Shown piece after piece: positions 48,754-61,407 of a stretch of DNA of 64,000 nt. Position numbers and translations under genes: made by a program. Source of the DNA: Serratia marcescens. Its GTDB lineage: Bacteria > Pseudomonadota > Gammaproteobacteria > Enterobacterales > Enterobacteriaceae. The DNA is taken from positions 1 to 64,000 of the forward strand of contig NZ_JARVZZ010000001.1 in assembly GCF_029846115.1 (NCBI RefSeq), read 5' to 3'. Under the pieces are notes generated by a model. It did not search any database and was not told where the DNA came from. It saw only the letters and a list, made by a program, of their open reading frames with translations. The number at the start of each line of letters is the position of its first letter. Within the stretch, counting starts at the first letter, position 1.

Positions 48754-49572
48754 TCAAATCGGCGTGACGAACCCCAGCTCCTGCGAGATGCGTTGTGCGG
48801 TAGCCAGCACCGGTTTAATCAGGCTTTTAACGCCGATCTGCTGCAGCTTGGCGGTCGGCAACGAGACAGACACCGCATAGGGCACGCGCTGTTGAATATC
48901 GAACACCGGCGCCGCCACGCAGGAGACCCCCAGCTCGTTTTCTTCGCGATCCATCGCCATGCCGCGCTGGCGAATATCGGCCAGTTCCTCATACATCTTC
49001 GGCAGCTCGGTGATGGTATTGCGCGTCAGCGTCTGAATCTCCTGCTGATGGGTCTGCCAGTAGTGGGCTGGGTAATCGTCGTTGCCGTAGGCCATGAAGA
49101 TTTTCCCCATCGCCGAACAGTACAGCGGCATATGCTGGCCAATATAGGCGCGGGTGCGCATCATGCCGGTGGTTGGCTCCAGCTTGTAGATCAGGATGAC
49201 GTGGTCGTCTTCGCGGCTGGAGAAGTTGACCGTCTCGCCCACCTCCAGGTTCAGCTGTTCCAAATGCGGCGCGGCCACGTGAATGATATTGAGTGACGAC
49301 AGCGCCTTCTGGCCGATGGAAATGAACTTGGTGGTCAGGCGGTAGCTGCCCGGCGAAGGCGCCTGGGTCACATAGCCGCTGGTGTGCAACCCCTGCAGCA
49401 GGCGATGCACGGTGCTCTTGTTCATGCCGGCCAGCTCGGACAGATGCGCCAGTGGGCATCCGTTGGGGAAATTGCTCAGGATCTCAATCAACTGCAAACC
49501 GCGGAACAGGCTTTGGCTGCCCAGCGGTTTGTCTTTCTTGTCATCTTTCTCGTCGACGGCTTTCAGGCTCAT
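48754..49572 (-). CDS. yiaJ: IclR-family regulator YiaJ
   Basis: 272 residues. Winged helix with SQSLFRGLQLIEILSNFPNGCPLAHLSELAGMNKSTVHRLLQGL and an IclR effector domain; it matches E. coli YiaJ over nearly its full length (SSREDDHVILIYKLEPTTGMMRTRAYIGQHMPLYCSAMGK is shared almost exactly, quoted in parts). YiaJ represses the yiaK-S operon in E. coli. Here it is divergent from the ABC importer, and paired operator-like sites precede both catabolic blocks. Confidence 0.9.
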   Translation of the reverse strand: MSLKAVDEKDDKKDKPLGSQSLFRGLQLIEILSNFPNGCPLAHLSELAGMNKSTVHRLLQGLHTSGYVTQAPSPGSYRLTTKFISIGQKALSSLNIIHVAAPHLEQLNLEVGETVNFSSREDDHVILIYKLEPTTGMMRTRAYIGQHMPLYCSAMGKIFMAYGNDDYPAHYWQTHQQEIQTLTRNTITELPKMYEELADIRQRGMAMDREENELGVSCVAAPVFDIQQRVPYAVSVSLPTAKLQQIGVKSLIKPVLATAQRISQELGFVTPI

Positions 49573-49774
49573 AGCGAAAATCTCTCCAGTGTCGAACCGC
49601 CAACCGGCGCTGCGGCGAAGTCAGCAGGCTCTTTGCCGGGCATGTTACCCCAAGGCCCGCATCAGGTGAAGACGGAACGCCGTTTCATTGTCCGCAGCGA
49701 GCCAAAAATCCGCAATATTTCCCCCGCATTGAAGTGAGCCATCGGTCACACTTCCGCAAAGTAAAAAATAACCC

Positions 49775-49793: not shown

Positions 49794-49840
49794 TAAAACT
49801 TCATCACCTTTGATTTAGCGCAACGAACGTCATATTATTT

Positions 49841-49870
49841 TTGAAATTGAATTTCGCATATTGAAATTTA
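49841..49870. promoter_or_regulatory. Predicted YiaJ operator 1
   Basis: GAAAT-N3-ATTTC-N7-GAAAT: an IclR-type palindrome followed by a further half-site. It is identical at 28 of 30 bases to operator 2 upstream of yiaK (54739-54768). It lies 77 bases before the importer ATPase ATG. Confidence 0.65.
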
Positions 49871-49946
49871 AAGACCAGATACTCACCAGCGGTTTAGCTA
49901 ATTTGCCCGGCATCTTCGCTCGGGCGCAACACCAGGGGCGCATCAC

Positions 49947-51500
49947 ATGGCTATGGATAATGCGGCACAACCCATCCTTACCCTCAGCCACATCGTCAAA
50001 CGATTTGGCGGCAACGTGGCGGTCAACGACGTCAGCCTGCAGGTAATGCCGGGCGAGGTTCTGGCACTGCTGGGCGAAAACGGCGCCGGCAAATCGACGC
50101 TGATCAAAGTGCTGGCGGGCGTCTACCCGCGCGACGGCGGCGATATTCGTTTTCAGGGCGCAAGCATCGCCTCCGCCGCCGCGATAAAAAGCGACAGCCG
50201 CCAGCCGATCGCCTTTATTCATCAGGATCTCGGCCTGATCGAATGGATGACGGTGGCGGAGAACATGGCGCTGGTGATGGGGTTTCCCCGCCGCTTTGGG
50301 TTGATCGACTGGCGCGCCATTCGCCGCCGGGCGGCGCAGGCGCTACAAGACGTCGGTATCGCGCTCGATCCCGATGCGCGCGTCTTCGAACTGTCGCGCA
50401 CCGAAAAATCGCTGCTGGCGATCGCCCGTGCGGTGGCGGTCAACGCCGAGTTGCTGGTGCTGGATGAACCGACCGCCTCCCTGCCCGCCAACGACGTGCG
50501 TCATCTGTTCGCCGTCATCAACCGGCTGCGCGCCAAAAAGGTCGGCATGATTTACGTCACCCATCGCCTGGACGAAGTGATCGAAATCGCCGATCGGGTC
50601 TGCGTAATGCGCGACGGGCGCTATGTCGCCGGCGGCCGCACCGCCGACTACTCCCTGCGCGATCTGGTGCAAACCATCGTCGGCGAAGCGATGGCGGACG
50701 ATCAGCGCGAACCGCTGCCGGAACATCGTCCGCCGGTGTTGCAGCTCGATAGCGTCACGGTGGGCGACATCGGCCCGGTGAGCTTCGATTTGCAGCCGGG
50801 CGAGATGCTGGCGCTGGCCGGCCTGCGCGGGGCCGGGCAAGAAGAGATCGGCCGGCTGCTGTTCGGGTTGCGTCAGGCCGACGGCGGCGCGATTCGGTTT
50901 CGCGATCGGTCCTATCAGGCGAGCTCCCCGCAGCAGGCGATGGCCTGCGGCGTTTCGCTGGTCGCGGGCGATCGCACCGGCGAAAGCCTGGTGATGTCGA
51001 TGAGCGTGCGTGAAAACCTGTTTATCAACCCCTGCGCCAGTGGCCACCGGCTGCTCTCCCGCTACGGGCGGCGAGCGGAGATCGGCGCCAGTTGGTGGAA
51101 AGTGCAGCTGTTCGACGTGCGCCCCAAGGACGTCAATATCGATATCAGCGCGCTGTCCGGCGGCAACCAGCAAAAGGTGGTGATGGCGCGCTGGATGCAC
51201 CTGGGGGCGCCGCTGCTGATCCTGGAAGATCCCACCGCCGGCGTGGACGTCGGCGCGCGCGCGGAAATCTACCACCTGCTGAATAAATCCCTGGCGGAAG
51301 GCGTGGCGGTGCTGGTGATCTCCAACGATTTCGAGGAGATCGCCCATATTTGCAACCGTGCACTGGTGTTCAACCGCGGGAAAATGGTCGGCGAACTGAA
51401 AAATCAACAGGTGTCATTCGCCAATTTATTGGAGCTGGCCTCTGCCAGCACCGGGGAAAGCGTCGCAATCACGTCAGAATCCGAGGTAGGCCATGTCTAA
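49947..51500 (+). CDS. Sugar ABC transporter ATP-binding protein, tandem ABC domains
   Basis: 517 residues with two ABC cassettes. The first has Walker A GENGAGKST (about residues 45-53) and LLVLDEPTAS; the second has a degenerate Walker A (LRGAGQEEI), LSGGNQQK and LILEDPTAGVD. It belongs to the RbsA/XylG class. The first gene of a four-gene operon downstream of operator 1; AGGGG precedes its ATG. Confidence 0.92.
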   Translation: MAMDNAAQPILTLSHIVKRFGGNVAVNDVSLQVMPGEVLALLGENGAGKSTLIKVLAGVYPRDGGDIRFQGASIASAAAIKSDSRQPIAFIHQDLGLIEWMTVAENMALVMGFPRRFGLIDWRAIRRRAAQALQDVGIALDPDARVFELSRTEKSLLAIARAVAVNAELLVLDEPTASLPANDVRHLFAVINRLRAKKVGMIYVTHRLDEVIEIADRVCVMRDGRYVAGGRTADYSLRDLVQTIVGEAMADDQREPLPEHRPPVLQLDSVTVGDIGPVSFDLQPGEMLALAGLRGAGQEEIGRLLFGLRQADGGAIRFRDRSYQASSPQQAMACGVSLVAGDRTGESLVMSMSVRENLFINPCASGHRLLSRYGRRAEIGASWWKVQLFDVRPKDVNIDISALSGGNQQKVVMARWMHLGAPLLILEDPTAGVDVGARAEIYHLLNKSLAEGVAVLVISNDFEEIAHICNRALVFNRGKMVGELKNQQVSFANLLELASASTGESVAITSESEVGHV

Positions 51501-52575
51501 AACATCCGTTAAATCAACCGCGCTGGAGCAGCGCGTCAGCCTGGCGCAGGACGGCGCCGGCCCCTGGCTGATGCAGGTTCTCACCCGCTATGGCCTGCTG
51601 CTGCTGTGCGTCGCGCTGGTCGTGCTGTTCTCACTGATCACCCCCTCTTTCGCATCGATGCTGACGCTGCAGGCTATCTTGTCGAGCAAGGCCAAAATCG
51701 CCCTGTTGGCGCTGGCGGCGACCATCCCGATGATCGTGGGCAAGATCGATCTTAACGTCGGCTTCGGCATTGTGCTGTGGCACATCCTGGCGATCACGCT
51801 GCAGGTGGAATACGGCTTCTCCTGGCAGATGGCGGTGCTGACGGTGCTGGCGATCTCGGCGCTTTACGGGTTGCTGAACGGCATTCTGGTGGCGCTGGCC
51901 GATATCGACAGCTTCGTCGCCACCCTCGGCTCCGGCACCGTGCTGTACGCCATTGCCCTGTGGCATTCCGGCGGGCGGCAGATCGTCGGCGACTTGCCGG
52001 ATGCCTTTATCGCGCTGCACCACACCGAGATCGCCGGCATTCCGATCGTGGCGTTTTACGTGCTGATCGTCGCGGTGGTGCTGTGGCTCATCACCGAGCA
52101 CACCCCGCTCGGCCGCTGCATGTATGCGGTGGGCGGCAACCCGGCGGCGGCGCGCCTGAACGGCATTTCGGTCAACCGCTTCACCATCGGCGCTTTCATC
52201 GCCTCCAGCGTGCTCACCGGTTTCAGCGGCGTGTTGATCGCCGCCGAACAGGGCGTCGGCCAGGCCAGCGTCGGCATGGACTATCTGCTGCCGGCGCTGG
52301 TCGGCGCCTTCCTCGGCAGCACCACCATTCGCCCAGGACGCGTCAATGTCTGGGGCACCGTGGTCGGCATCGCCATTCTGGCTATCGGCATCGCCGGCAT
52401 TCAGCAGTTCGGCGGTGAATTCTGGGTCGAGCCGCTGTTCAACGGCGCGACGCTGTTGCTGTCGATCACCCTGGCCGGCTATGCCCAACGCCGCCGGCTG
52501 CTCAATCAGAAAGCGGTACAACGCAGCCAGACGACGCCAACTGACAACAACAATCAGACAGCGACCCACCCTTAA
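51493..52575 (+). CDS. Sugar ABC transporter permease
   Basis: 360 residues, eight to ten membrane helices of the ribose/xylose permease family, with MIVGKIDLNVGFGIVLWHIL, AVGGNPAAARLNGISVNRF and a C-terminal FLGSTTIRPGRVNVWGTVVG. Overlaps the ATPase gene by 8 bases. A single permease, so it would act as a homodimer. Confidence 0.9.
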   Translation: MSKTSVKSTALEQRVSLAQDGAGPWLMQVLTRYGLLLLCVALVVLFSLITPSFASMLTLQAILSSKAKIALLALAATIPMIVGKIDLNVGFGIVLWHILAITLQVEYGFSWQMAVLTVLAISALYGLLNGILVALADIDSFVATLGSGTVLYAIALWHSGGRQIVGDLPDAFIALHHTEIAGIPIVAFYVLIVAVVLWLITEHTPLGRCMYAVGGNPAAARLNGISVNRFTIGAFIASSVLTGFSGVLIAAEQGVGQASVGMDYLLPALVGAFLGSTTIRPGRVNVWGTVVGIAILAIGIAGIQQFGGEFWVEPLFNGATLLLSITLAGYAQRRRLLNQKAVQRSQTTPTDNNNQTATHP

Positions 52576-52589
52576 ACCAGGAGCACACC

Positions 52590-53690
52590 ATGAAACGCAT
52601 TTGGCTGTTACCGGGGTTCACCACATTATTGCTCGCCGCATCGCCGGCCTGGGCCGACGCCTATCTCGATCAGGCCACCGCCGCCGTCGCGAAGGCCACC
52701 GCCAGCGCCACCCAGTGGGATGGCCCCACCAGCGGCCCGCAGCTGCAGGCCAACAAGAAGATCATTTTTATCGCCTCCGACATGAAGAACGGCGGCGTCC
52801 AAGGGGTGCAACAGGGGTTGAGCGAAGCGGCAAAAGCCGCCGGCTGGAAGCTGGAAACGCTCGACGGCGGCGGCTCGGTGAAAGATCAGCTGGCATCGCT
52901 CAATCAGGCCATCGCCCAGAAACCGGACGGCATCGTGATCGGCGGCTGGAACCCTAACGTCGCCAAGATCCCGCTGAAAAAGGCCGTGCAGCAGGGCATC
53001 GTGCTGACCGCCTGGCATGCGGTGCCGGAACCGGGCCCCATCGCCAAATACAATGTGTTCTATAACGTCACGTCGGACTCCAACGAAGTGGCGCGCATCG
53101 CCGCGCAATACGCGGTGGTGCAGTCCGGCGGCAAGGCGAGCGTGCTGATCTTCACCGACTCGCTGTATCAAATCGCGCTGGACAAGGCCAACGTCATGAA
53201 AGACGAGATCGCCAAATGCAGCGGCTGCACGCTGCTGGAATTCATCGATACGCCGCTGGCCGATACCGCCAACCGCATGCCGGCGATGACCTTCAGCCTG
53301 CTGCAGAAGTACGGCGACAAATTCCAATATGCGCTGGCGATCAACGATCTGTACTTCGACTTTATGGCACCGGCGCTGAAGACCGCCGGCAAAGGCGGCA
53401 AGAACGCGCCTTACAACGTGTCGGCCGGCGACGGTTCGATCTCCGCTTACCAGCGTATCCGGTCGGGCGACAGCCAGTCGGCGACGGTGCCGGAACCCTT
53501 GAAGCTGCACGGTTGGCAACTGCTGGACGAATTCAACCGCGCCTTTGCCAAGCAGCCGCCTTCCGGCTACGTCACCCCGGCGCATCTGGTGACCCGCGAC
53601 AATATCGCCGCCGACGGGGGCGCCAATAACCTGTATGACCCGCAAAACGATTATCAGGGCCATTACAAAGCGATCTGGGGCGTGAAATGA
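52590..53690 (+). CDS. Periplasmic sugar-binding protein
   Basis: 366 residues with a signal peptide cleaved after AASPAWA (about residue 22) and a type I periplasmic binding fold (KIIFIASDMKNGGVQGVQQGL, KPDGIVIGGWNP). It is longer than RbsB-type proteins and has two cysteines (KCSGCTL) that may form a disulfide. The ligand is unknown; the neighbouring lactonase and yia genes suggest an aldonate, keto-acid or lactone. Its stop overlaps the SMP-30 start (ATGA). Confidence 0.86.
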   Translation: MKRIWLLPGFTTLLLAASPAWADAYLDQATAAVAKATASATQWDGPTSGPQLQANKKIIFIASDMKNGGVQGVQQGLSEAAKAAGWKLETLDGGGSVKDQLASLNQAIAQKPDGIVIGGWNPNVAKIPLKKAVQQGIVLTAWHAVPEPGPIAKYNVFYNVTSDSNEVARIAAQYAVVQSGGKASVLIFTDSLYQIALDKANVMKDEIAKCSGCTLLEFIDTPLADTANRMPAMTFSLLQKYGDKFQYALAINDLYFDFMAPALKTAGKGGKNAPYNVSAGDGSISAYQRIRSGDSQSATVPEPLKLHGWQLLDEFNRAFAKQPPSGYVTPAHLVTRDNIAADGGANNLYDPQNDYQGHYKAIWGVK

Positions 53691-54553
53691 ACGGCGATTC
53701 ATTGCGCACGCACGCCCGGCTCGAGCGCCTGTGTTCGCCGGCGATCTGGGCCGAGGGGCCGGTGTGGCTACCGCAGGAGGATGCGGTGGTGTTCAGCGAT
53801 GTGAAAGGCAACCGCATGTTCCGCTGGTCGCGCCGGGGTGAGCTGACCCTATACCGTTCGCCGTCGCACTACGCCAACGGCAATGCGCGCGACGGCGAAG
53901 GGCGCGTGGTCAGCTGCGAACACGGGCGGCGCGGCATTAGCCGCACCGAAAGCGATGGCGAGGTACGTCTGTTGATCGATCGCGTCGACGGCAAGCGCTT
54001 TAACTCGCCGAACGACGTGGCGGTGCGTTCCGACGGCACCCTATGGTTCACCGATCCGCCCTACGGCATCATCGGCGACGAAGAGGGTTACAAATCGGAA
54101 AGCCAGGTGATCGGCTGTTATCTCTACAGCTTCGATCCGCGCGACGGTTCGCTGACCATCGCCGCCTGCGACCTGCAGCGCCCGAACGGCCTGGCGTTTT
54201 CACCGGATGAAAAATGGCTGTACGTTGCGGACATGTCGATCGTGGATTTTCCGACGCTGGGCCGCCGCGAGCTGCGCGTCTATGCGGTCAACGGCCGCGG
54301 GCTGGAAGCCGGCCGCCGTTTTGCAACGGTGGGGCCCGGATTCCCGGACGGCTTCTGCGTCGATCGGACCGGCAATCTGTTTTGCAGCTGTGCCGACGGC
54401 GTGCTGGTCTTTGATCCAGAGGGGCGGCAGATCGACAAAATCAGCGTGCCGGAACGCGTCTCCAATTGTACCTTCGGCGGCCCGAACGGCGATGAACTCT
54501 ATATCACCGCCACCACCTCGCTCTACCGCATGGTGCTGAACACCCGCGGTTAG
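53687..54553 (+). CDS. SMP-30/gluconolactonase family lactonase
   Basis: 288 residues, a six-bladed beta-propeller. The four metal ligands of the family are in place: E23 (AEGPVWLP), N109 (RFNSPNDVAV), N167 (RPNGLAFSPD) and D221 (FPDGFCVD). It would hydrolyse a sugar lactone to the acid. No signal peptide, so cytoplasmic. Overlap with the binding-protein gene ties it to import. In an ascorbate-like pathway it could open a lactone before YiaK; substrate is inference. Confidence 0.86.
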   Translation: MNGDSLRTHARLERLCSPAIWAEGPVWLPQEDAVVFSDVKGNRMFRWSRRGELTLYRSPSHYANGNARDGEGRVVSCEHGRRGISRTESDGEVRLLIDRVDGKRFNSPNDVAVRSDGTLWFTDPPYGIIGDEEGYKSESQVIGCYLYSFDPRDGSLTIAACDLQRPNGLAFSPDEKWLYVADMSIVDFPTLGRRELRVYAVNGRGLEAGRRFATVGPGFPDGFCVDRTGNLFCSCADGVLVFDPEGRQIDKISVPERVSNCTFGGPNGDELYITATTSLYRMVLNTRG

Positions 54554-54570
54554 CCGGGGTCTCGCAAGAC

Positions 54571-54600
54571 GCAGGGTGGGTTTCGATCCGCCCTGCTTTG
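54571..54600 (+). terminator. Terminator of the importer-lactonase operon
   Basis: GCAGGGTGG pairs with CCGCCCTGC (one G-T pair) around an 8-base loop, followed by TTTG, 18 bases after the lactonase stop. Confidence 0.65.
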
Positions 54601-54738
54601 TCACGTCTGAAGCACGCCATCTCCACCAAAACGTGGCGGCGATCACAAAATCACCACTTAATTTTAACGTCATGTTTTTCATGAACAATTTTACTTCCCC
54701 TTGCTTTGACTTCCCTGAACCGCCGGGATAGCATTTAT

Positions 54739-54768
54739 TTGAAATGCAATTTCGCATATTGAAATTTA
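54739..54768. promoter_or_regulatory. Predicted YiaJ operator 2
   Basis: GAAAT-N3-ATTTC-N7-GAAAT again, differing from operator 1 at two adjacent bases in the N3 spacer. It lies 42 bases before the yiaK ATG, probably overlapping the promoter. Confidence 0.65.
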
Positions 54769-55821: not shown

Positions 55822-56292
55822 ATGATATTCGGCCACATCGCCAACACCGCGCCCGAGCAGTACCCGGCGCCGGTCGCCAACGCCGTCGCCTATCTGCAGC
55901 GCACCGATTTCAGCGTCTTGCCCGCAGGGCGTTATGAAGATCCCGCCACCGGCTACGTGGTGCAAGTGCTCGATCTGCATACCCAACCACCGGATGCGCT
56001 GCGCCCGGAAGTCCACCGGCAAAACGTCGACGTGCAGTTTCTGGTCAGCGGCACCGAGCTTATCGGCGTCGCGGCGGACAGCGGCGACAACGTCATTCAT
56101 CAGGAGCTGCTGGCACAGCGCGACATCCTGTTTTATCAGGACGTGACCGACGAATCCTGGCTCACGATGCAACCCGGCAACTTCGCAGTATTTTTTCCAC
56201 AGGACGTGCATCGCCCGGCCTGCATTAACCAGCGCCCCTGCGCGATACGCAAGGTGGTGGTGAAGATACCGCTGGCGTCGTTTAGCGCCTGA
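55822..56292 (+). CDS. yiaL: YhcH/YjgK/YiaL family protein
   Basis: 156 residues, cupin-like fold (DUF386). DVQFLVSGTELIGVA, a conserved His in PPDALRPEVHRQNVD, and HPQ-like PQDVHRPACI near the end mark the metal site of this family. In E. coli it follows yiaK. Its reaction in the pathway is not established; an anomer or ring-opening role has been suggested for relatives. Confidence 0.9.
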   Translation: MIFGHIANTAPEQYPAPVANAVAYLQRTDFSVLPAGRYEDPATGYVVQVLDLHTQPPDALRPEVHRQNVDVQFLVSGTELIGVAADSGDNVIHQELLAQRDILFYQDVTDESWLTMQPGNFAVFFPQDVHRPACINQRPCAIRKVVVKIPLASFSA

Positions 56293-56417
56293 TAGACGCA
56301 ACACCCGTAACGATAACAACACCGGTCCATGGGGCCTGTGTGGGCTCCCTTGCGCCCAAATCAAACAAAACAATAACGCCCGACCCTACAAAAAAGCGAA
56401 CATCGAAAGAGGTCCTT

Positions 56418-57713
56418 ATGAATACAGCCTCCGTTTCCGTCAGCCAAAGCCAGGCTATCCCCAAGCTACGCTGGCTGAGGATCGTGCCGCCGATCCTCAT
56501 CACCTGCATCATTTCTTACATGGATCGGGTCAACATCGCCTTCGCCATGCCCGGCGGCATGGATGACGAACTCGGCATCACTGCTTCAATGGCCGGGCTG
56601 GCCGGCGGCATCTTCTTTATCGGTTACCTGTTTCTGCAGGTGCCCGGCGGCAAGCTGGCGGTATACGGCAACGGCAAGAAATTCATCGGCTGGTCACTGT
56701 TGGCCTGGGCGGTGATCTCGGTGCTGACCGGTCTGGTCACCAACCAGTACCAGTTGCTGTTCTTGCGCTTCGCCCTCGGCGTTTCCGAAGGCGGCATGCT
56801 GCCGGTGGTGCTGACCATGATCAGCAACTGGTTCCCGGATAAGGAGCGCGGCCGCGCCAACGCCATCGTCATCATGTTCGTGCCGATCGCCGGCATCCTC
56901 ACCGCCCCGCTGTCGGGTTGGATCATCACCGCCTGGGACTGGCGCATGCTGTTTCTGGTGGAAGGCGGTCTGTCGCTGGTGGTGATGGCGCTGTGGTACT
57001 TCACCATCAGCAACCGGCCGCAGGAAGCCAAATGGATCTCGCAGGCGGAAAAAGAGTATCTGGTAAAGACCCTGCACGACGAACAGCTGCTGATTAAAGG
57101 AAAAACGGTGCGCAACGCCTCGCTACGCCGGGTGCTGGGCGACCGGATCATGTGGCAGTTGATCCTGGTGAATTTCTTCTACCAGACCGGTATTTACGGC
57201 TACACCCTGTGGCTGCCGACCATTTTGAAAGAGCTGACCCACGGCGATATGGAGCAAGTGGGCCTGCTGGCTATTCTGCCCTATATCGGCGCCATCTTCG
57301 GCATGCTGATCATCTCCACCCTCTCCGACCGCACCGGCAAGCGCAAAGTCTTCGTCGCCCTGCCGCTGGCCTGCTTTGCCGCCTGCATGGCGCTGTCGGT
57401 GCTGCTGAAGGATCACGTCTGGTGGTCTTACGCTGCGCTGGTCGGCTGCGGCGTGTTTATTCAGGCGGCGGCCGGGGTGTTCTGGACCATACCGCCCAAA
57501 TTGTTCAACGCCGAAGTGGCCGGCGGCGCACGCGGCGTGATCAATGCGCTGGGCAACCTCGGCGGCTTTTGCGGCCCGTATATGGTCGGCGTCCTGATCA
57601 GCCTGTTCAACAAGGACGTCGGCGTCTACAGCCTGGCGGCTTCGCTGGCGATCGCCTCCGTGCTGGCGTTGATGCTGCCCAATAAATGCGACCATAGCGC
57701 GAGGAACCCATGA
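56418..57713 (+). CDS. MFS transporter of the yia operon (YiaX2-like)
   Basis: 431 residues from ATG 56418 (AGAGGTCC upstream). Twelve membrane helices of the anion:cation symporter group, with ISYMDRVNIAFAMPGG, RFALGVSEGGMLPVVL and SNWFPDKERGRANA. It replaces the yiaMNO TRAP transporter of E. coli, as in the Klebsiella yia operon. The locus thus has two importers, this and the ABC system. Overlaps lyxK by ATGA. Confidence 0.86.
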   Translation: MNTASVSVSQSQAIPKLRWLRIVPPILITCIISYMDRVNIAFAMPGGMDDELGITASMAGLAGGIFFIGYLFLQVPGGKLAVYGNGKKFIGWSLLAWAVISVLTGLVTNQYQLLFLRFALGVSEGGMLPVVLTMISNWFPDKERGRANAIVIMFVPIAGILTAPLSGWIITAWDWRMLFLVEGGLSLVVMALWYFTISNRPQEAKWISQAEKEYLVKTLHDEQLLIKGKTVRNASLRRVLGDRIMWQLILVNFFYQTGIYGYTLWLPTILKELTHGDMEQVGLLAILPYIGAIFGMLIISTLSDRTGKRKVFVALPLACFAACMALSVLLKDHVWWSYAALVGCGVFIQAAAGVFWTIPPKLFNAEVAGGARGVINALGNLGGFCGPYMVGVLISLFNKDVGVYSLAASLAIASVLALMLPNKCDHSARNP

Positions 57714-59203
57714 TGGAATATTGGCTGGGGCTCGACTGCGGCGGCACCTTCATCAAGGCGGGATTATACGACCACAAGGGCCATGAACACGGCGTTGCGC
57801 GGCGCAATCTGGCGATCGTCGCGCCGCAGCCCGGCTGGGCCGAGCGAGATATGGCATCGCTGTGGCACACCGCCGCCGACGTGATCCGCGAAGTGCTGTC
57901 CGCCAGCGGCGTCGCCGCCGGCGCCATTCAGGCCGTCGGCATCTCGGCGCAGGGCAAGGGGGCGTTTCTGTTGGATAAACAGGGGCAGCCGCTGGGCAAC
58001 GCCATGCTCTCTTCCGACCAGCGCGCGCTGGCGTTGGTGCAGGAATGGCAACGGCAGGGCGTGCCGCAGGCGCTGTATCCGCAAACGCGCCAAACGTTGT
58101 GGACCGGGCACCCGGTCTCGCTGCTACGCTGGCTGAAGCGGCATCAGCCGGAGCGTTACGCCCGCATCGGCAGCGTGCTGATGGCGCACGACTACCTGCG
58201 CTATTGCCTGACCGGCGAGTTGGCCTGCGAAGAAACCAATATCTCCGAATCCAACCTGTATCAGATGCGCAGCGGACGCTATGACCCGGCGCTGGCGCAG
58301 CTGCTGGGTATCGGCGACATCATGCCCGCCCTGCCGACGATTGTCGGTTCGGCCGATATCGCCGGGCGCGTCGCGGCAAACGCCGCGGCCATCACCGGCC
58401 TGCAAACCGGCACCCCGGTGGTCGGCGGGCTGTTCGACGTAGTGTCCACCGCGCTGTGCGCCGGCCTGCAGGACGAAACCCGGCTCAATGCGGTGATGGG
58501 GACCTGGTCGGTCACCAGCGGCATCACCGACGCCATCGTCGAGGGTTTCGATCATCCCTTTGTCTATGGCCGCCACGCCGAAAGCGGCCAATACATCGTG
58601 CACGAAGCCAGCCCCACCTCCGCCGCCAACCTGGAATGGTTCTGTCGCCAATGGGGGCTGCAGGACTACGGCCAGCTTAACCGCTGGGTCGCCGCCCTGC
58701 CGAAAGCCGCCGGCGATCTGCTGTTCGCCCCTTTCCTGTATGGCTCCAACGCCGGTCTGGGGCTGAGCGCCAGCTTCTACGGCCTGCAGGCCTTCCACCA
58801 GCGCGAGCACCTGGTGCAGGCGATCTACGAAGGCGTGGTGTTCTGCCACATGACGCACCTTAACCGCATGCGCCGGCGTTTCCCTGAGGCGCAGGCACTG
58901 CGCGTGACCGGCGGCCCCGCCAAATCCCTCCCCTGGATGCAAATGTTCGCCGACGTCAGCGGCCTGCCGGTGGAGCTGCCGCAGGTGGAAGAAACCGGCT
59001 GTCTGGGCGCGGCGATGGCGGCCATGGTCGGCAGCGGCGTCTTCAACGATTTCACCGCCGCCCAGCACCGGCTGGCGCCGCGTATCGAGCGGCTGCTGCC
59101 TGATGCGGCCGCTGCCGAGGCTTACGACAACAAACACCAACGTTATCAGGCGCTGATTGCTGCATTGCAACATCTGCAGCCCGCCAACAAGGAGGCCCCA
59201 TGA
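57710..59203 (+). CDS. lyxK: L-xylulose / 3-keto-L-gulonate kinase
   Basis: 497 residues, FGGY carbohydrate kinase. YWLGLDCGGTFIKAGLYD is the N-terminal ATP-binding loop; QPGWAERDM, TGHPVSLLRWLK, GGLFDVVSTALCAG and RVTGGPAKSLPWMQM match E. coli LyxK (YiaP). It phosphorylates 3-keto-L-gulonate and L-xylulose. Start ATG overlaps the MFS stop, and its stop overlaps the next ATG. Confidence 0.93.
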   Translation: MMEYWLGLDCGGTFIKAGLYDHKGHEHGVARRNLAIVAPQPGWAERDMASLWHTAADVIREVLSASGVAAGAIQAVGISAQGKGAFLLDKQGQPLGNAMLSSDQRALALVQEWQRQGVPQALYPQTRQTLWTGHPVSLLRWLKRHQPERYARIGSVLMAHDYLRYCLTGELACEETNISESNLYQMRSGRYDPALAQLLGIGDIMPALPTIVGSADIAGRVAANAAAITGLQTGTPVVGGLFDVVSTALCAGLQDETRLNAVMGTWSVTSGITDAIVEGFDHPFVYGRHAESGQYIVHEASPTSAANLEWFCRQWGLQDYGQLNRWVAALPKAAGDLLFAPFLYGSNAGLGLSASFYGLQAFHQREHLVQAIYEGVVFCHMTHLNRMRRRFPEAQALRVTGGPAKSLPWMQMFADVSGLPVELPQVEETGCLGAAMAAMVGSGVFNDFTAAQHRLAPRIERLLPDAAAAEAYDNKHQRYQALIAALQHLQPANKEAP

Positions 59204-59856
59204 GCACGAAACCGCGCCTGCAGCTGGCGCTCGATCAAACCCGTTTGGATACGGCGCTGCGCACCGCCGAGACCCTCAGCCCCCATGTGGACATCATCGA
59301 GGCCGGTACCATTTTGTGCATCAGCGCCGGCATTCAGGCGGTTAGCGCGCTGCGCGAGCGCTGTCCGCAGCACACGCTGGTGGCCGATCTCAAGGTGGCC
59401 GACGCCGGTGCGACGCTGGCCGAGCAGGCCTTCGGCCAGGGCGCGAACTGGATGACGGTGATCTGCGCCGCGCCGTTGGCCACCATGGCCAGCGCGCGAG
59501 AGGTCGCCGAGCGTCACGGCGGTGAAATCCAGATCGAACTGTTCGGCCGCTGGACATTAGAGGATGCGCGGCAATGGCGCGGCCTCGGCATTCGCCAGGC
59601 GATCTATCACCGCGGCCGCGACGCGCAGGCCAGCGGGCAAACCTGGGGCCGGCAGGATTTGGATCGGATGAAGGCACTGTCCGATCTGGGCATCGCGCTG
59701 TCGGTGACCGGCGGCATCACGCCCGCCGACCTGCCGCTGTTTAAAGAGATCGCCGTCACCGCTTTTATCGCCGGCCGCGCGCTGGCCGAGGCCGGCGATC
59801 CGCCGGCGGCCGCCAGGCAGTTCCGCACCGCCATCGAAGACATCTGGAGATCATGA
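59200..59856 (+). CDS. sgbH: 3-keto-L-gulonate-6-phosphate decarboxylase
   Basis: 218 residues, orotidine-phosphate-decarboxylase-fold TIM barrel. [35 protein letters not shown] with the Asp-Lys-Asp catalytic group, and SVTGGITP match SgbH/UlaD (YiaQ). It yields L-xylulose 5-phosphate and CO2. Overlaps lyxK by ATGA. Confidence 0.93.
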
Positions 59857-59857
59857 T

Positions 59858-60718
59858 ATGCGTCAGCACCCGTTGGGAATTTACGAGAAAGCGCTGCCGA
59901 AACACCTGAGCTGGCCCGAACGCCTGGCGCTGGCCAAGGCCTGCGGCTTCGACTTCGTCGAAATGTCGGTGGACGAAAGCGATGAACGCCTGGCGCGCCT
60001 GAGCTGGAGCAAAGCGCAGCGCCTGGCGCTGGTGGATGCCATGCTGGAAACCGGCATCCGCATCCCGTCGATGTGCCTCTCCGGCCACCGGCGCTTTCCG
60101 TTTGGCAGCCACGATCCGGCGCTGCGACAGCGCGCCTTCGACGTGATGGAACAGGCCATTCAGCTGGCCCAAGACGTCGGTATCCGCACCATCCAACTGG
60201 CCGGCTACGACGTGTATTACGAAGAGCAGGACGAGGGGACGCTGGCGCGCTTTAGCGAAGGCATGCAGTGGGCGGTAGAACGTGCCGCCGCCGCCCAGGT
60301 GATGCTGGCGGTGGAAATTATGGATACCGCCTTTATGAACTCGATCGGTAAATGGAAAGCCTGGGACACCCTGTTGGCCTCGCCGTGGTTCACGGTGTAT
60401 CCGGACGTCGGCAACCTCAGCGCCTGGGGCAACGACGTGCCGCGTGAATTGGAGCTGGGCATCGATCGCATCGCCGCCATTCACCTGAAAGACACCTACC
60501 CGGTCACCGCCGCTTCGCCGGGGCAATTCCGTGACGTGCCGTTTGGCGAAGGCTGCGTCGACTTCGTCGAGGTGTTTCGCACGCTGCAGCGCCTCAATTA
60601 CCGCGGCGCATTCCTGATTGAGATGTGGACAGAAAAAGCCGAGGAGCCGGTGGCCGAGATCGTTCAGGCCCGCCGCTGGATCGAACAGAAAATGCAACAA
60701 GGGGGCATGACATGCTGA
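59858..60718 (+). CDS. sgbU: L-ribulose/L-xylulose-5-phosphate 3-epimerase
   Basis: 286 residues, xylose-isomerase-like TIM barrel. [53 protein letters not shown] and [10 protein letters not shown] match SgbU/UlaE (YiaR). It converts L-xylulose 5-phosphate to L-ribulose 5-phosphate. The end overlaps the sgbE start by 7 bases. Confidence 0.93.
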
Positions 60719-61407
60719 CTCAGTTAAAACAACAGGTGCTGGAGGCCAATCTCGATCTGCCGCGCCATAAGCTGGTGACCTTTACCTGGGGCAACGTCAG
60801 CGCGGTGGATCGCGAACGCGGCCTGGTGGTGATCAAGCCTTCCGGCGTTGAATACGAGCATATGACGGCGGAGGATATGGTGGTGGTCGATCTGGCCAGC
60901 GGCCGCACCGTCGAAGGGGCAAAAAAACCGTCGTCGGACACCGCCACCCATCTGGCGCTGTACCGCGAATTTGCCGATATCGGCGGCATCGTCCACACCC
61001 ATTCGCGCCACGCCACCATCTGGGCGCAGGCCGGGCTGGACATCCCCGCCTGGGGAACCACCCACGCCGATTATTTTTATGGCGCTATTCCCTGCACGCG
61101 CCTGATGACCCAGGATGAAATTGAGCACGATTACGAACTGGAAACCGGCAAGGTGATTATCGAAACCTTCCGCCGGCGCGATATCAATCCCAACGCTATC
61201 CCAGCGGTACTGGTCAACGCCCACGGCCCCTTCGCCTGGGGCAAAGACGCCCACAACGCGGTGCATAATGCGGTGGTGCTGGAAGAGATCGCCTACATGG
61301 GCATTTTCTCACGCCAGCTGACGCCGGGCATTCACAGCATGCAGCGCGAGCTGTTGGACAAACACTACCTGCGCAAACACGGCCAAAACGCCTACTACGG
61401 GCAGTAG
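60712..61407 (+). CDS. sgbE: L-ribulose-5-phosphate 4-epimerase
   Basis: 231 residues from ATG 60712, the E. coli length; a longer frame to 60625 is inside sgbU. Zinc ligands H95 and H97 (VHTHSRH), a distal His in NAHGPFAWG, and D76 (SSDTATH) match AraD/SgbE/UlaF. It makes D-xylulose 5-phosphate, which enters the pentose phosphate pathway. Last gene of the operon; a hairpin follows. Confidence 0.94.

What the first reader, a model, noticed from the sequence alone, without database searches (positions are those of the whole stretch)
49841..54768. Near-identical 30-base operators join an ABC importer operon to the yia catabolic operon
49841-49870 and 54739-54768 agree at 28 of 30 positions with the pattern GAAAT-N3-ATTTC-N7-GAAAT. 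One precedes the ABC importer-lactonase operon, the other yiaK. A YiaJ/IclR-type gene sits beside the first. GAAAT/ATTTC palindromes are typical of IclR-family operators. The third half-site suggests binding of two dimers. This would make the importer and lactonase part of the YiaJ regulon, which is not the case in E. coli.
Basis: partly seen in the sequence, partly recalled or inferred. Interest (0 to 1): 0.7.

Follow-up and report, generated by a model that had tools for sequence, protein, structure and literature searches.

The report
YiaJ operators control importer and catabolism
Two nearly identical DNA switches probably let one repressor control both a sugar-acid breakdown operon and a neighbouring nutrient importer with a lactone-opening enzyme, a link that recurs in many enterobacteria but not in E. 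coli.

Summary
In detail: 49841-49870 and 54739-54768 agree at 28 of 30 bases, and the exact pattern occurs only at these two places in the 5.2 Mb genome. The neighbouring IclR gene is the YiaJ (PlaR) orthologue. E. coli K-12 has the same three-box site between yiaJ and yiaK.

The main prediction passes comparative tests. In 80 named loci with the importer's binding protein, abcA carries the site in 51 of 51 cases where it stands first beside yiaJ, and in 0 of 16 where it lies behind yiaK or yiaO. Serratia sp. Ag1 has the importer but no YiaJ and no site. No match to importer or lactonase was found in 5,426 E. coli genomes.

Three-box operators are already described for the IclR family, so the operator type is not new. 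In none of the papers I could search is the importer-lactonase placed in the YiaJ regulon. A CRP-like site also sits about 100 bp upstream of both operators and of 92 of 105 related ones. 'Two dimers' is possible, not shown.

Nothing was tested at the bench; the substrate (perhaps a lactone of the ascorbate family) is inferred.

The parts
48754..49572 (-). yiaJ (plaR), IclR-family regulator
   Evidence: IclR domains; 1ysq E 5.3e-91; 75% to E. coli YiaJ
49735..49750 (.). CRP-like site TGAGCCATCGGTCACA, 8 of 10 to a recalled consensus, centred 100 bp before the first GAAAT
   Evidence: recurrence in relatives
49810..49838 (+). predicted promoter TTGATT-17-TATTAT of the importer operon
   Evidence: 1 found, 0.6 expected in shuffles; same geometry in relatives
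49841..49870 (+). operator 1; boxes 49843-49847, 49851-49855, 49863-49867
49947..51500 (+). ABC importer ATPase (abcA)
51493..52575 (+). ABC importer permease (abcC)
52590..53690 (+). periplasmic sugar-type binding protein
   Evidence: Peripla_BP_4; fold
53687..54553 (+). SMP-30/gluconolactonase-type lactonase
   Evidence: SGL domain; 3dr2 E 1.2e-63
54632..54647 (.). CRP-like site CGTGGCGGCGATCACA, 8 of 10, centred 101 bp before the first GAAAT
54706..54734 (+). predicted promoter TTGACT-17-TAGCAT of the yiaK operon
   Evidence: 1 found, 0.3 expected in shuffles
54739..54768 (+). operator 2; boxes 54741-54745, 54749-54753, 54761-54765
   Evidence: same place in E. coli
54810..55808 (+). yiaK, 3-dehydro-L-gulonate 2-dehydrogenase
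   Evidence: NF009750 above cut-off
55822..56292 (+). yiaL
   Evidence: TIGR00022 above cut-off
56340..57713 (+). MFS transporter in the place of yiaMNO
   Evidence: MFS_1
57710..59203 (+). FGGY sugar kinase, lyxK position
   Evidence: 64% to E. coli lyxK
59200..59856 (+). [quoted passage not shown]
   Evidence: NF009831 above cut-off
59858..60718 (+). sgbU, L-ribulose-5-phosphate 3-epimerase
   Evidence: NF009689 above cut-off
60712..61407 (+). sgbE, L-ribulose-5-phosphate 4-epimerase
   Evidence: NF009002 above cut-off

Best explanation
The two 30-mers are operators of the local YiaJ (PlaR) repressor, one before the importer-lactonase operon and one before the yiaK catabolic operon. Each begins just after a predicted -10 box, over the presumed transcription start, so bound YiaJ would block both units until an inducer, probably a metabolite of the ascorbate/2,3-diketogulonate route, releases it. 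A CRP-like site about 100 bp upstream would add catabolite control. Importer and lactonase are thus in one regulon with the yia genes. Shown here: the sites, the regulator's identity, their co-occurrence, and their place relative to promoter-like sequence. Inferred: binding, repression, inducer, substrate. Most likely substrate (about 40%): ascorbate, dehydroascorbate or a related L-gulonate-type lactone, opened by the lactonase and passed to YiaK.
For: 28 of 30 identity with unrelated flanks. Genus: exact sites in 19 of 30 genomes, the regulator in exactly the same 19; reversed-pattern control 0 of 30. Family sample of 295: exact pattern in 24 of 45 genomes with the regulator and 13 of 250 without. 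abcA first beside yiaJ: 51 of 51 with at most 3 mismatches (22 exact), 0.7 expected from shuffles; abcA internal: 0 of 16. Upstream regions of eleven other cluster genes: 0 of 253 with 3 or fewer mismatches. E. coli has the site between yiaJ and yiaK, where the PlaR-box is reported to overlap the yiaK promoter, with repression predicted (PMC6958661, section read). Importer without YiaJ (Serratia sp. Ag1): no site. Spacer positions not used for selection mostly fit the published RYW3RY consensus.
Against: No binding or expression data for this genome. The published E. coli PlaR-box ATnTGAAACnnnGTTCAnTT has two boxes and GAAAC/GTTCA, not GAAAT/ATTTC. Relatives are not independent: 46 of the 51 leading cases share one gene order. 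Sites with 3 mismatches are weak, above all in AT-rich Pasteurellaceae. The exact pattern also occurs in 13 family genomes without the regulator, four of them of about 0.6 Mb. G263 has YiaJ beside yiaK with only a 3-mismatch site. Each promoter prediction alone is no better than chance. Two Rouxiella genomes have yiaJ, importer, lactonase and site but no yiaK, so the substrate need not pass through YiaK everywhere.
Confidence: 0.85

Rival explanations
1. Only operator 2 is a YiaJ site; operator 1 serves yiaJ itself (autoregulation) and does not control the importer.
For: Operator 1 lies between yiaJ and abcA, so it could act on yiaJ. In G097-type orphans a decayed operator-like sequence stays upstream of yiaJ although importer and yiaK are gone (genus g97, loci L136-L138).
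Against: Operator 1 is on the importer side, 79 bases before abcA and 270 before yiaJ, just after a promoter-like sequence pointing to abcA. In Mangrovibacter the importer lies on the far side of yiaJ and has its own site. Importers away from yiaJ in Gallibacterium and Paludibacterium still carry a site.
Confidence: 0.08
2. Another IclR-family protein, such as KdgR or a further paralogue, binds the 30-mers.
For: KdgR-type boxes resemble the published PlaR-box (PMC6958661); the genome has other IclR-like genes (8-9 first-look candidates).
Against: Site and YiaJ occur in the same 19 of 30 genus genomes; in the genome that keeps the importer but has only a 35% IclR paralogue the site is absent.
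Confidence: 0.05
3. The 30-mers are a recent non-functional duplication of the intergenic region.
For: 28 of 30 identity within 5 kb.
Against: Flanks are unrelated, and both sites are kept in relatives far beyond Serratia.
Confidence: 0.01
4. A different kind of link: the two operators, 4.9 kb apart, are bound together by YiaJ and looped.
For: Two near-identical sites on one molecule; the family can bind as tetramers (PMC8222616, section read).
Against: The 4.9 kb spacing follows from the genes between; single-site arrangements are common. Nothing here tests looping.
Confidence: 0.05

Closest known systems
E. coli YiaJ/PlaR control of yiaKLMNO-lyxK-sgbHUE
   Same: Orthologous regulator; same three-box sequence before yiaK (K-12: TTGAAATCAAGTTTCGCATATTGAAATTTT); matching downstream enzymes; yiaJ and yiaK are named among CRP targets of E. 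coli (PMC3105977, passages read).
   Different: No importer-lactonase match in E. coli and one operator; here two units with two operators, and an MFS gene in place of yiaMNO.
Three-box IclR-family operators (Suvorova and Gelfand 2021, PMC8222616; PcaU, PobR, HmgR)
   Same: Three boxes of alternating direction, one pair with short spacer and one with a RYW3RY-type spacer.
   Different: Boxes are GAAAT/ATTTC. YiaJ, PlaR and Serratia are not named in the main text; the supplementary tables could not be read.
Ribose/galactofuranose-type ABC sugar importers
   Same: Two-domain ATPase, BPD_transp_2 permease, Peripla_BP_4 binding protein; ribose-binding-protein fold.
   Different: Scores stay far below the NCBIfam equivalog cut-offs listed; substrate unknown; a lactonase gene follows directly.

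Membership tests
YiaJ/PlaR orthologues | IclR-family protein nearest to YiaJ | tested here: met
   Pfam; 1ysq E 5.3e-91, next 4.3e-24; 75% to E. coli YiaJ. NCBIfam has no YiaJ model among the hits; E. coli YiaJ and this protein hit the same families below cut-off.
YiaJ/PlaR orthologues | Gene in one cluster with a yiaK-type operon | tested here: met
   Same cluster; importer-lactonase lies between yiaJ and yiaK
YiaJ/PlaR orthologues | DNA-recognition segment conserved | tested here: met
   NKSTVHRLLQGL identical in 45 of 45 aligned rows; that it is the recognition helix is recalled. The seven orphan rows have it too, so it does not tell them apart.
YiaJ regulon | YiaJ-type site in the promoter, conserved across relatives | tested here: met
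   51 of 51 leading abcA, 0 of 16 internal; 0.7 expected
YiaJ regulon | YiaJ binds the site and represses the unit | not testable with these tools
   needs gel shift or footprint and a yiaJ deletion
IclR three-box operator | Two overlapping inverted pairs sharing the middle box | tested here: met
   GAAAT-N3-ATTTC and ATTTC-N7-GAAAT; published scheme read in PMC8222616
IclR three-box operator | RYW3RY spacer in the longer pair (not used to pick sites) | tested here: inconclusive
   By position in 29 sites: R29 Y28 W29 W29 W28 R20 Y29; in a second set 17 of 39 match all seven. The window's own spacer GCATATT departs at position 6, so the fit is good but not full.
Four half-site (two full palindromes) operator | A fourth box on either side | tested here: not met
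   Columns -12 to -8 fall in the -10 region and +28 to +32 read AAGAT, not ATTTC; two dimers on three boxes remain possible

The most novel reading that the evidence does not exclude
Importer and lactonase form a YiaJ-controlled entry module for a lactone of the ascorbate family. The module recurs in different gene orders together with a composite promoter of fixed geometry (CRP-like site, about 100 bp, then a three-box YiaJ operator over the start site), so that E. coli would have a reduced form of the regulon without this module.
Probability: 0.35. Interest if true: 0.6.

Novelty: new member of a known kind. Interest (0 to 1): 0.45.

Why it matters
YiaJ targets have been studied in E. coli, where this importer was not found. 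The result proposes a regulator for an importer of unknown substrate in Serratia, Pectobacterium, Erwinia, Pantoea and others, and ties it to L-gulonate/ascorbate catabolism. That makes the substrate, and the disputed YiaJ inducer (80 compounds without effect in an earlier study cited in PMC5540944, passage read), directly testable. It also gives natural gain and loss cases for how an operator follows a gene through rearrangement.

Tried and rejected
More regulon members in the own genome. The best further candidates were C1:4878574 (2 mismatches) and C1:716871 (3 mismatches). The first lies inside a 530-aa reading frame, the second at the very start of the coding sequence of a binding-protein gene. 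On the 25-base score they reach 21.2 and 20.7, below the lowest of 29 training sites (23.8); the window sites score 39.7 and 39.6. I scored all seven listed places with 2 mismatches and six of those with 3, not the whole list; one search counts 106 places and lists the first ones. Rejected.

GAAACAGAATTTGCCTGGCGGCAAT appears seven times in the list at 3 mismatches. I took it, from recall, for a repeat of the rRNA operons and did not follow it.

Substrate from structure: the binding-protein model (pLDDT 79.9, 12 sequences) matches many ribose- and galactofuranose-type proteins with near-equal scores, so no specificity follows.

Prior description of the importer in a YiaJ regulon: searches listed no such paper. 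The library holds open-licence papers only. A yiaK promoter study (Ibanez et al. 2000, cited in PMC5540944) was asked for by a recalled PubMed id and is not held. Supplements of PMC8222616 and the RegPrecise site could not be read, so a database prediction may already exist.

Fourth box: looked for, not found.

Rows dropped or corrected: one search kept 80 of 108 relatives found. In one search the Erwinia MAG and Tolumonas loci had too little upstream sequence, and Acidisoma had no abcA. The 3-mismatch abcA value printed for the Erwinia MAG is an artefact of a start beyond the contig end. In one search a broken abcA (G019) gave two rows; I count it once. The 253 control regions leave out yiaJ (45 rows, nine with 2-3 mismatches, which I take to be the same sites read on the other strand) and the lactonase (22 rows; one with 1 mismatch, in G217, where it stands first; the rest 5 or more). 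In one search Testudinibacter and Rodentibacter each run under two labels, so genus counts there are slightly high.
Full report
What is in the sequence. The two 30-mers are real and agree at 28 of 30 positions. Their flanks agree only at chance level (30/100 and 28/100), and 300 shuffled pairs of the two intergenic regions never gave a match above 22 of 30. The exact three-box pattern occurs in the 5.2 Mb genome only at these two sites, with none for the reversed pattern. With up to 3 mismatches the genome has 106 places against 74 for the reversed control, so loose matches count only where position supports them.

The neighbours. The IclR gene at 48754-49572 is the YiaJ (PlaR) orthologue: its best solved relative is the E. 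coli YiaJ domain (E 5.3e-91; next 4.3e-24), it is 75% identical to E. coli YiaJ, and NKSTVHRLLQGL is identical in 45 of 45 regulators aligned (that this is the recognition helix is recalled). E. coli YiaJ and this protein hit the same NCBIfam models below cut-off. Downstream are an ATPase, a permease, a binding protein and an SMP-30 lactonase, then yiaK, yiaL, an MFS gene, a lyxK-position kinase, sgbH, sgbU and sgbE.

E. coli. Of 5,426 E. coli genomes, 4,942 hold a place covering at least 80% of the 30-mer. I looked at the annotation of two: in both it lies between yiaJ and yiaK. The importer stretch (3,744 bases) has no place covering 80% in any of the 5,426; 3,733 genomes have short pieces, and the ten rows shown are 8% matches to another sugar ATPase. 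The lactonase has no match. Both are blastn searches, down to about 65-70% identity. The PlaR paper (PMC6958661; passages and section 8 read) places a PlaR-box over the yiaK promoter and predicts repression; ascorbate and galacturonate reduced binding to the yiaK promoter. Its consensus (GAAAC/GTTCA, two boxes) differs from the boxes here, a point against.

Co-occurrence. Of 30 genomes of the genus, 19 have the exact site (15 twice, 4 once), and exactly the same 19 have the regulator. In the four with one exact site the yiaK site has one mismatch. In a family sample of 295, 37 have an exact site and 45 the regulator; 24 have both, 13 a site without the regulator; the reversed pattern occurs in 5. 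The binding protein is in 18 of 295, and 17 of these have the regulator.

Specificity. Over 46 loci, abcA has the site with 0, 1 and 2 mismatches at 14, 8 and 1 of 24 loci; the last, with 5, is the genome without YiaJ. yiaK: 0/1/2/3/4 mismatches at 11/16/4/1/2 of 34. Upstream regions of eleven other cluster genes: 0 of 253 with 3 or fewer (yiaJ and lactonase left out; see Tried and rejected).

The strongest test. Of 108 relatives of the binding protein found in named genomes, 80 loci were kept. Where abcA stands first beside yiaJ, 51 of 51 have the site (22 exact, 19 with one, 7 with two, 3 with three mismatches), against 0.7 expected from shuffles. Where abcA stands behind yiaK or yiaO, 0 of 16. 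With no yiaJ in the locus, 2 of 10 that could be judged. Those two, Paludibacterium and Gallibacterium, have a YiaJ of 62-63% identity elsewhere in the genome, and the Gallibacterium yiaJ-yiaK stretch has an exact site. The order differs: importer between yiaJ and yiaK, each with its own site (Serratia, Pectobacterium, Pantoea; weaker yiaK sites in several Erwinia); apparently one unit ahead of yiaK with a strong site only before abcA (Raoultella, Kosakonia, Phytobacter); the far side of yiaJ (Mangrovibacter, Testudinibacter); inside the yiaK unit (Pasteurellaceae, Pleomorphomonas and others). A YiaJ tree needs 9 changes of arrangement, the least possible being 3, so this is not one inherited layout; but 46 of 51 share the divergent order, and relatives are not independent.

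Losses. Its genome has no YiaJ at E 1e-60 (only a 35% IclR paralogue) and no yiaK at 1e-80. Orphan yiaJ genes in three g97 genomes and G070 have no yiaK in the genome and no importer in the fetched loci, and none of the seven loci has a site with 2 or fewer mismatches. Three g97 loci keep a decayed version with 3-4 mismatches upstream of yiaJ.

Architecture. The boxes form the pairs GAAAT-N3-ATTTC and ATTTC-N7-GAAAT, sharing the middle box. Suvorova and Gelfand (PMC8222616; abstract, passages and sections 13-15 read) describe three-box sites for 32 orthologous groups and suggest alternative dimer forms; PcaU needs its third box. YiaJ and PlaR are not named in the main text. Spacer positions not used for selection mostly fit RYW3RY, though the window's own sites depart at one position. 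No fourth box is seen, so 'two dimers' stays open.

Promoters. At both sites a promoter-like pair ends 4 or 6 bases before the first GAAAT. Alone each is no better than chance (0.6 and 0.3 expected), but in 28 of 29 genus-by-target sites the best such pair ends 1-7 bases before GAAAT, which fits repression by blocking. I also found a CRP-like site centred 100 and 101 bp upstream. A match of 8 of 10 or better at 96-102 bp occurs in 49 of 51 abcA and 43 of 54 yiaK promoters with a site; the reversed pattern gives 0 and 0, shuffles 0.27 for all 105. The 13 misses include both Testudinibacter abcA and 5 of 9 Pantoea yiaK promoters. The 54 include E. coli K-12; there yiaJ and yiaK are named among RegulonDB CRP targets, and multiple CRP sites in the yiaJ-yiaK spacer are reported with roles not established (PMC3105977, passages). 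The consensus used is recalled.

Function. Importer, lactonase and YiaK together suggest uptake of a lactone of the ascorbate family, opened to a 2,3-diketogulonate-type acid. This is inference from pathway knowledge. The binding-protein fold gives no specificity, and two Rouxiella genomes have the module without yiaK.

Verdict. Operator type and regulator are known kinds. Placing the importer-lactonase in the YiaJ regulon, and the conserved composite promoter, are additions that none of the papers searched was listed for. A prediction in RegPrecise or in supplements I could not read may already exist.

Noticed in passing
49735-49750 and 54632-54647: CRP-like palindromes 100/101 bp from the first operator box in both promoters, repeated at 96-102 bp in 92 of 105 related promoters.
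   Followed up: yes
L171 / L182 (Serratia sp. Ag1): Importer between argO and mscS without yiaJ, lactonase, yiaK or operator.
   Followed up: yes
L129 and L142 (G085, contig length as Prodigiosinella confusarubida, L212): Two YiaJ paralogues in one genome, one beside the importer and one beside yiaK, each unit with its own site.
   Followed up: partly
L128 9885-16286 (Rouxiella aceris, G246): No yiaK in the genome; behind the importer-lactonase lie a xylose-isomerase-like gene, a second sugar ABC importer, an RpiR-type regulator and a ribokinase-like gene.
   Followed up: partly
L123 (G217): Lactonase without importer between yiaJ and yiaK, with its own one-mismatch three-box site.
   Followed up: no
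L118 (G019): abcA and lyxK each match in two pieces in this genome, as if broken, while both operators remain.
   Followed up: no
L136-L138 (genus g97): Orphan yiaJ with a decayed operator-like sequence upstream (3-4 mismatches); no yiaK in these genomes.
   Followed up: partly
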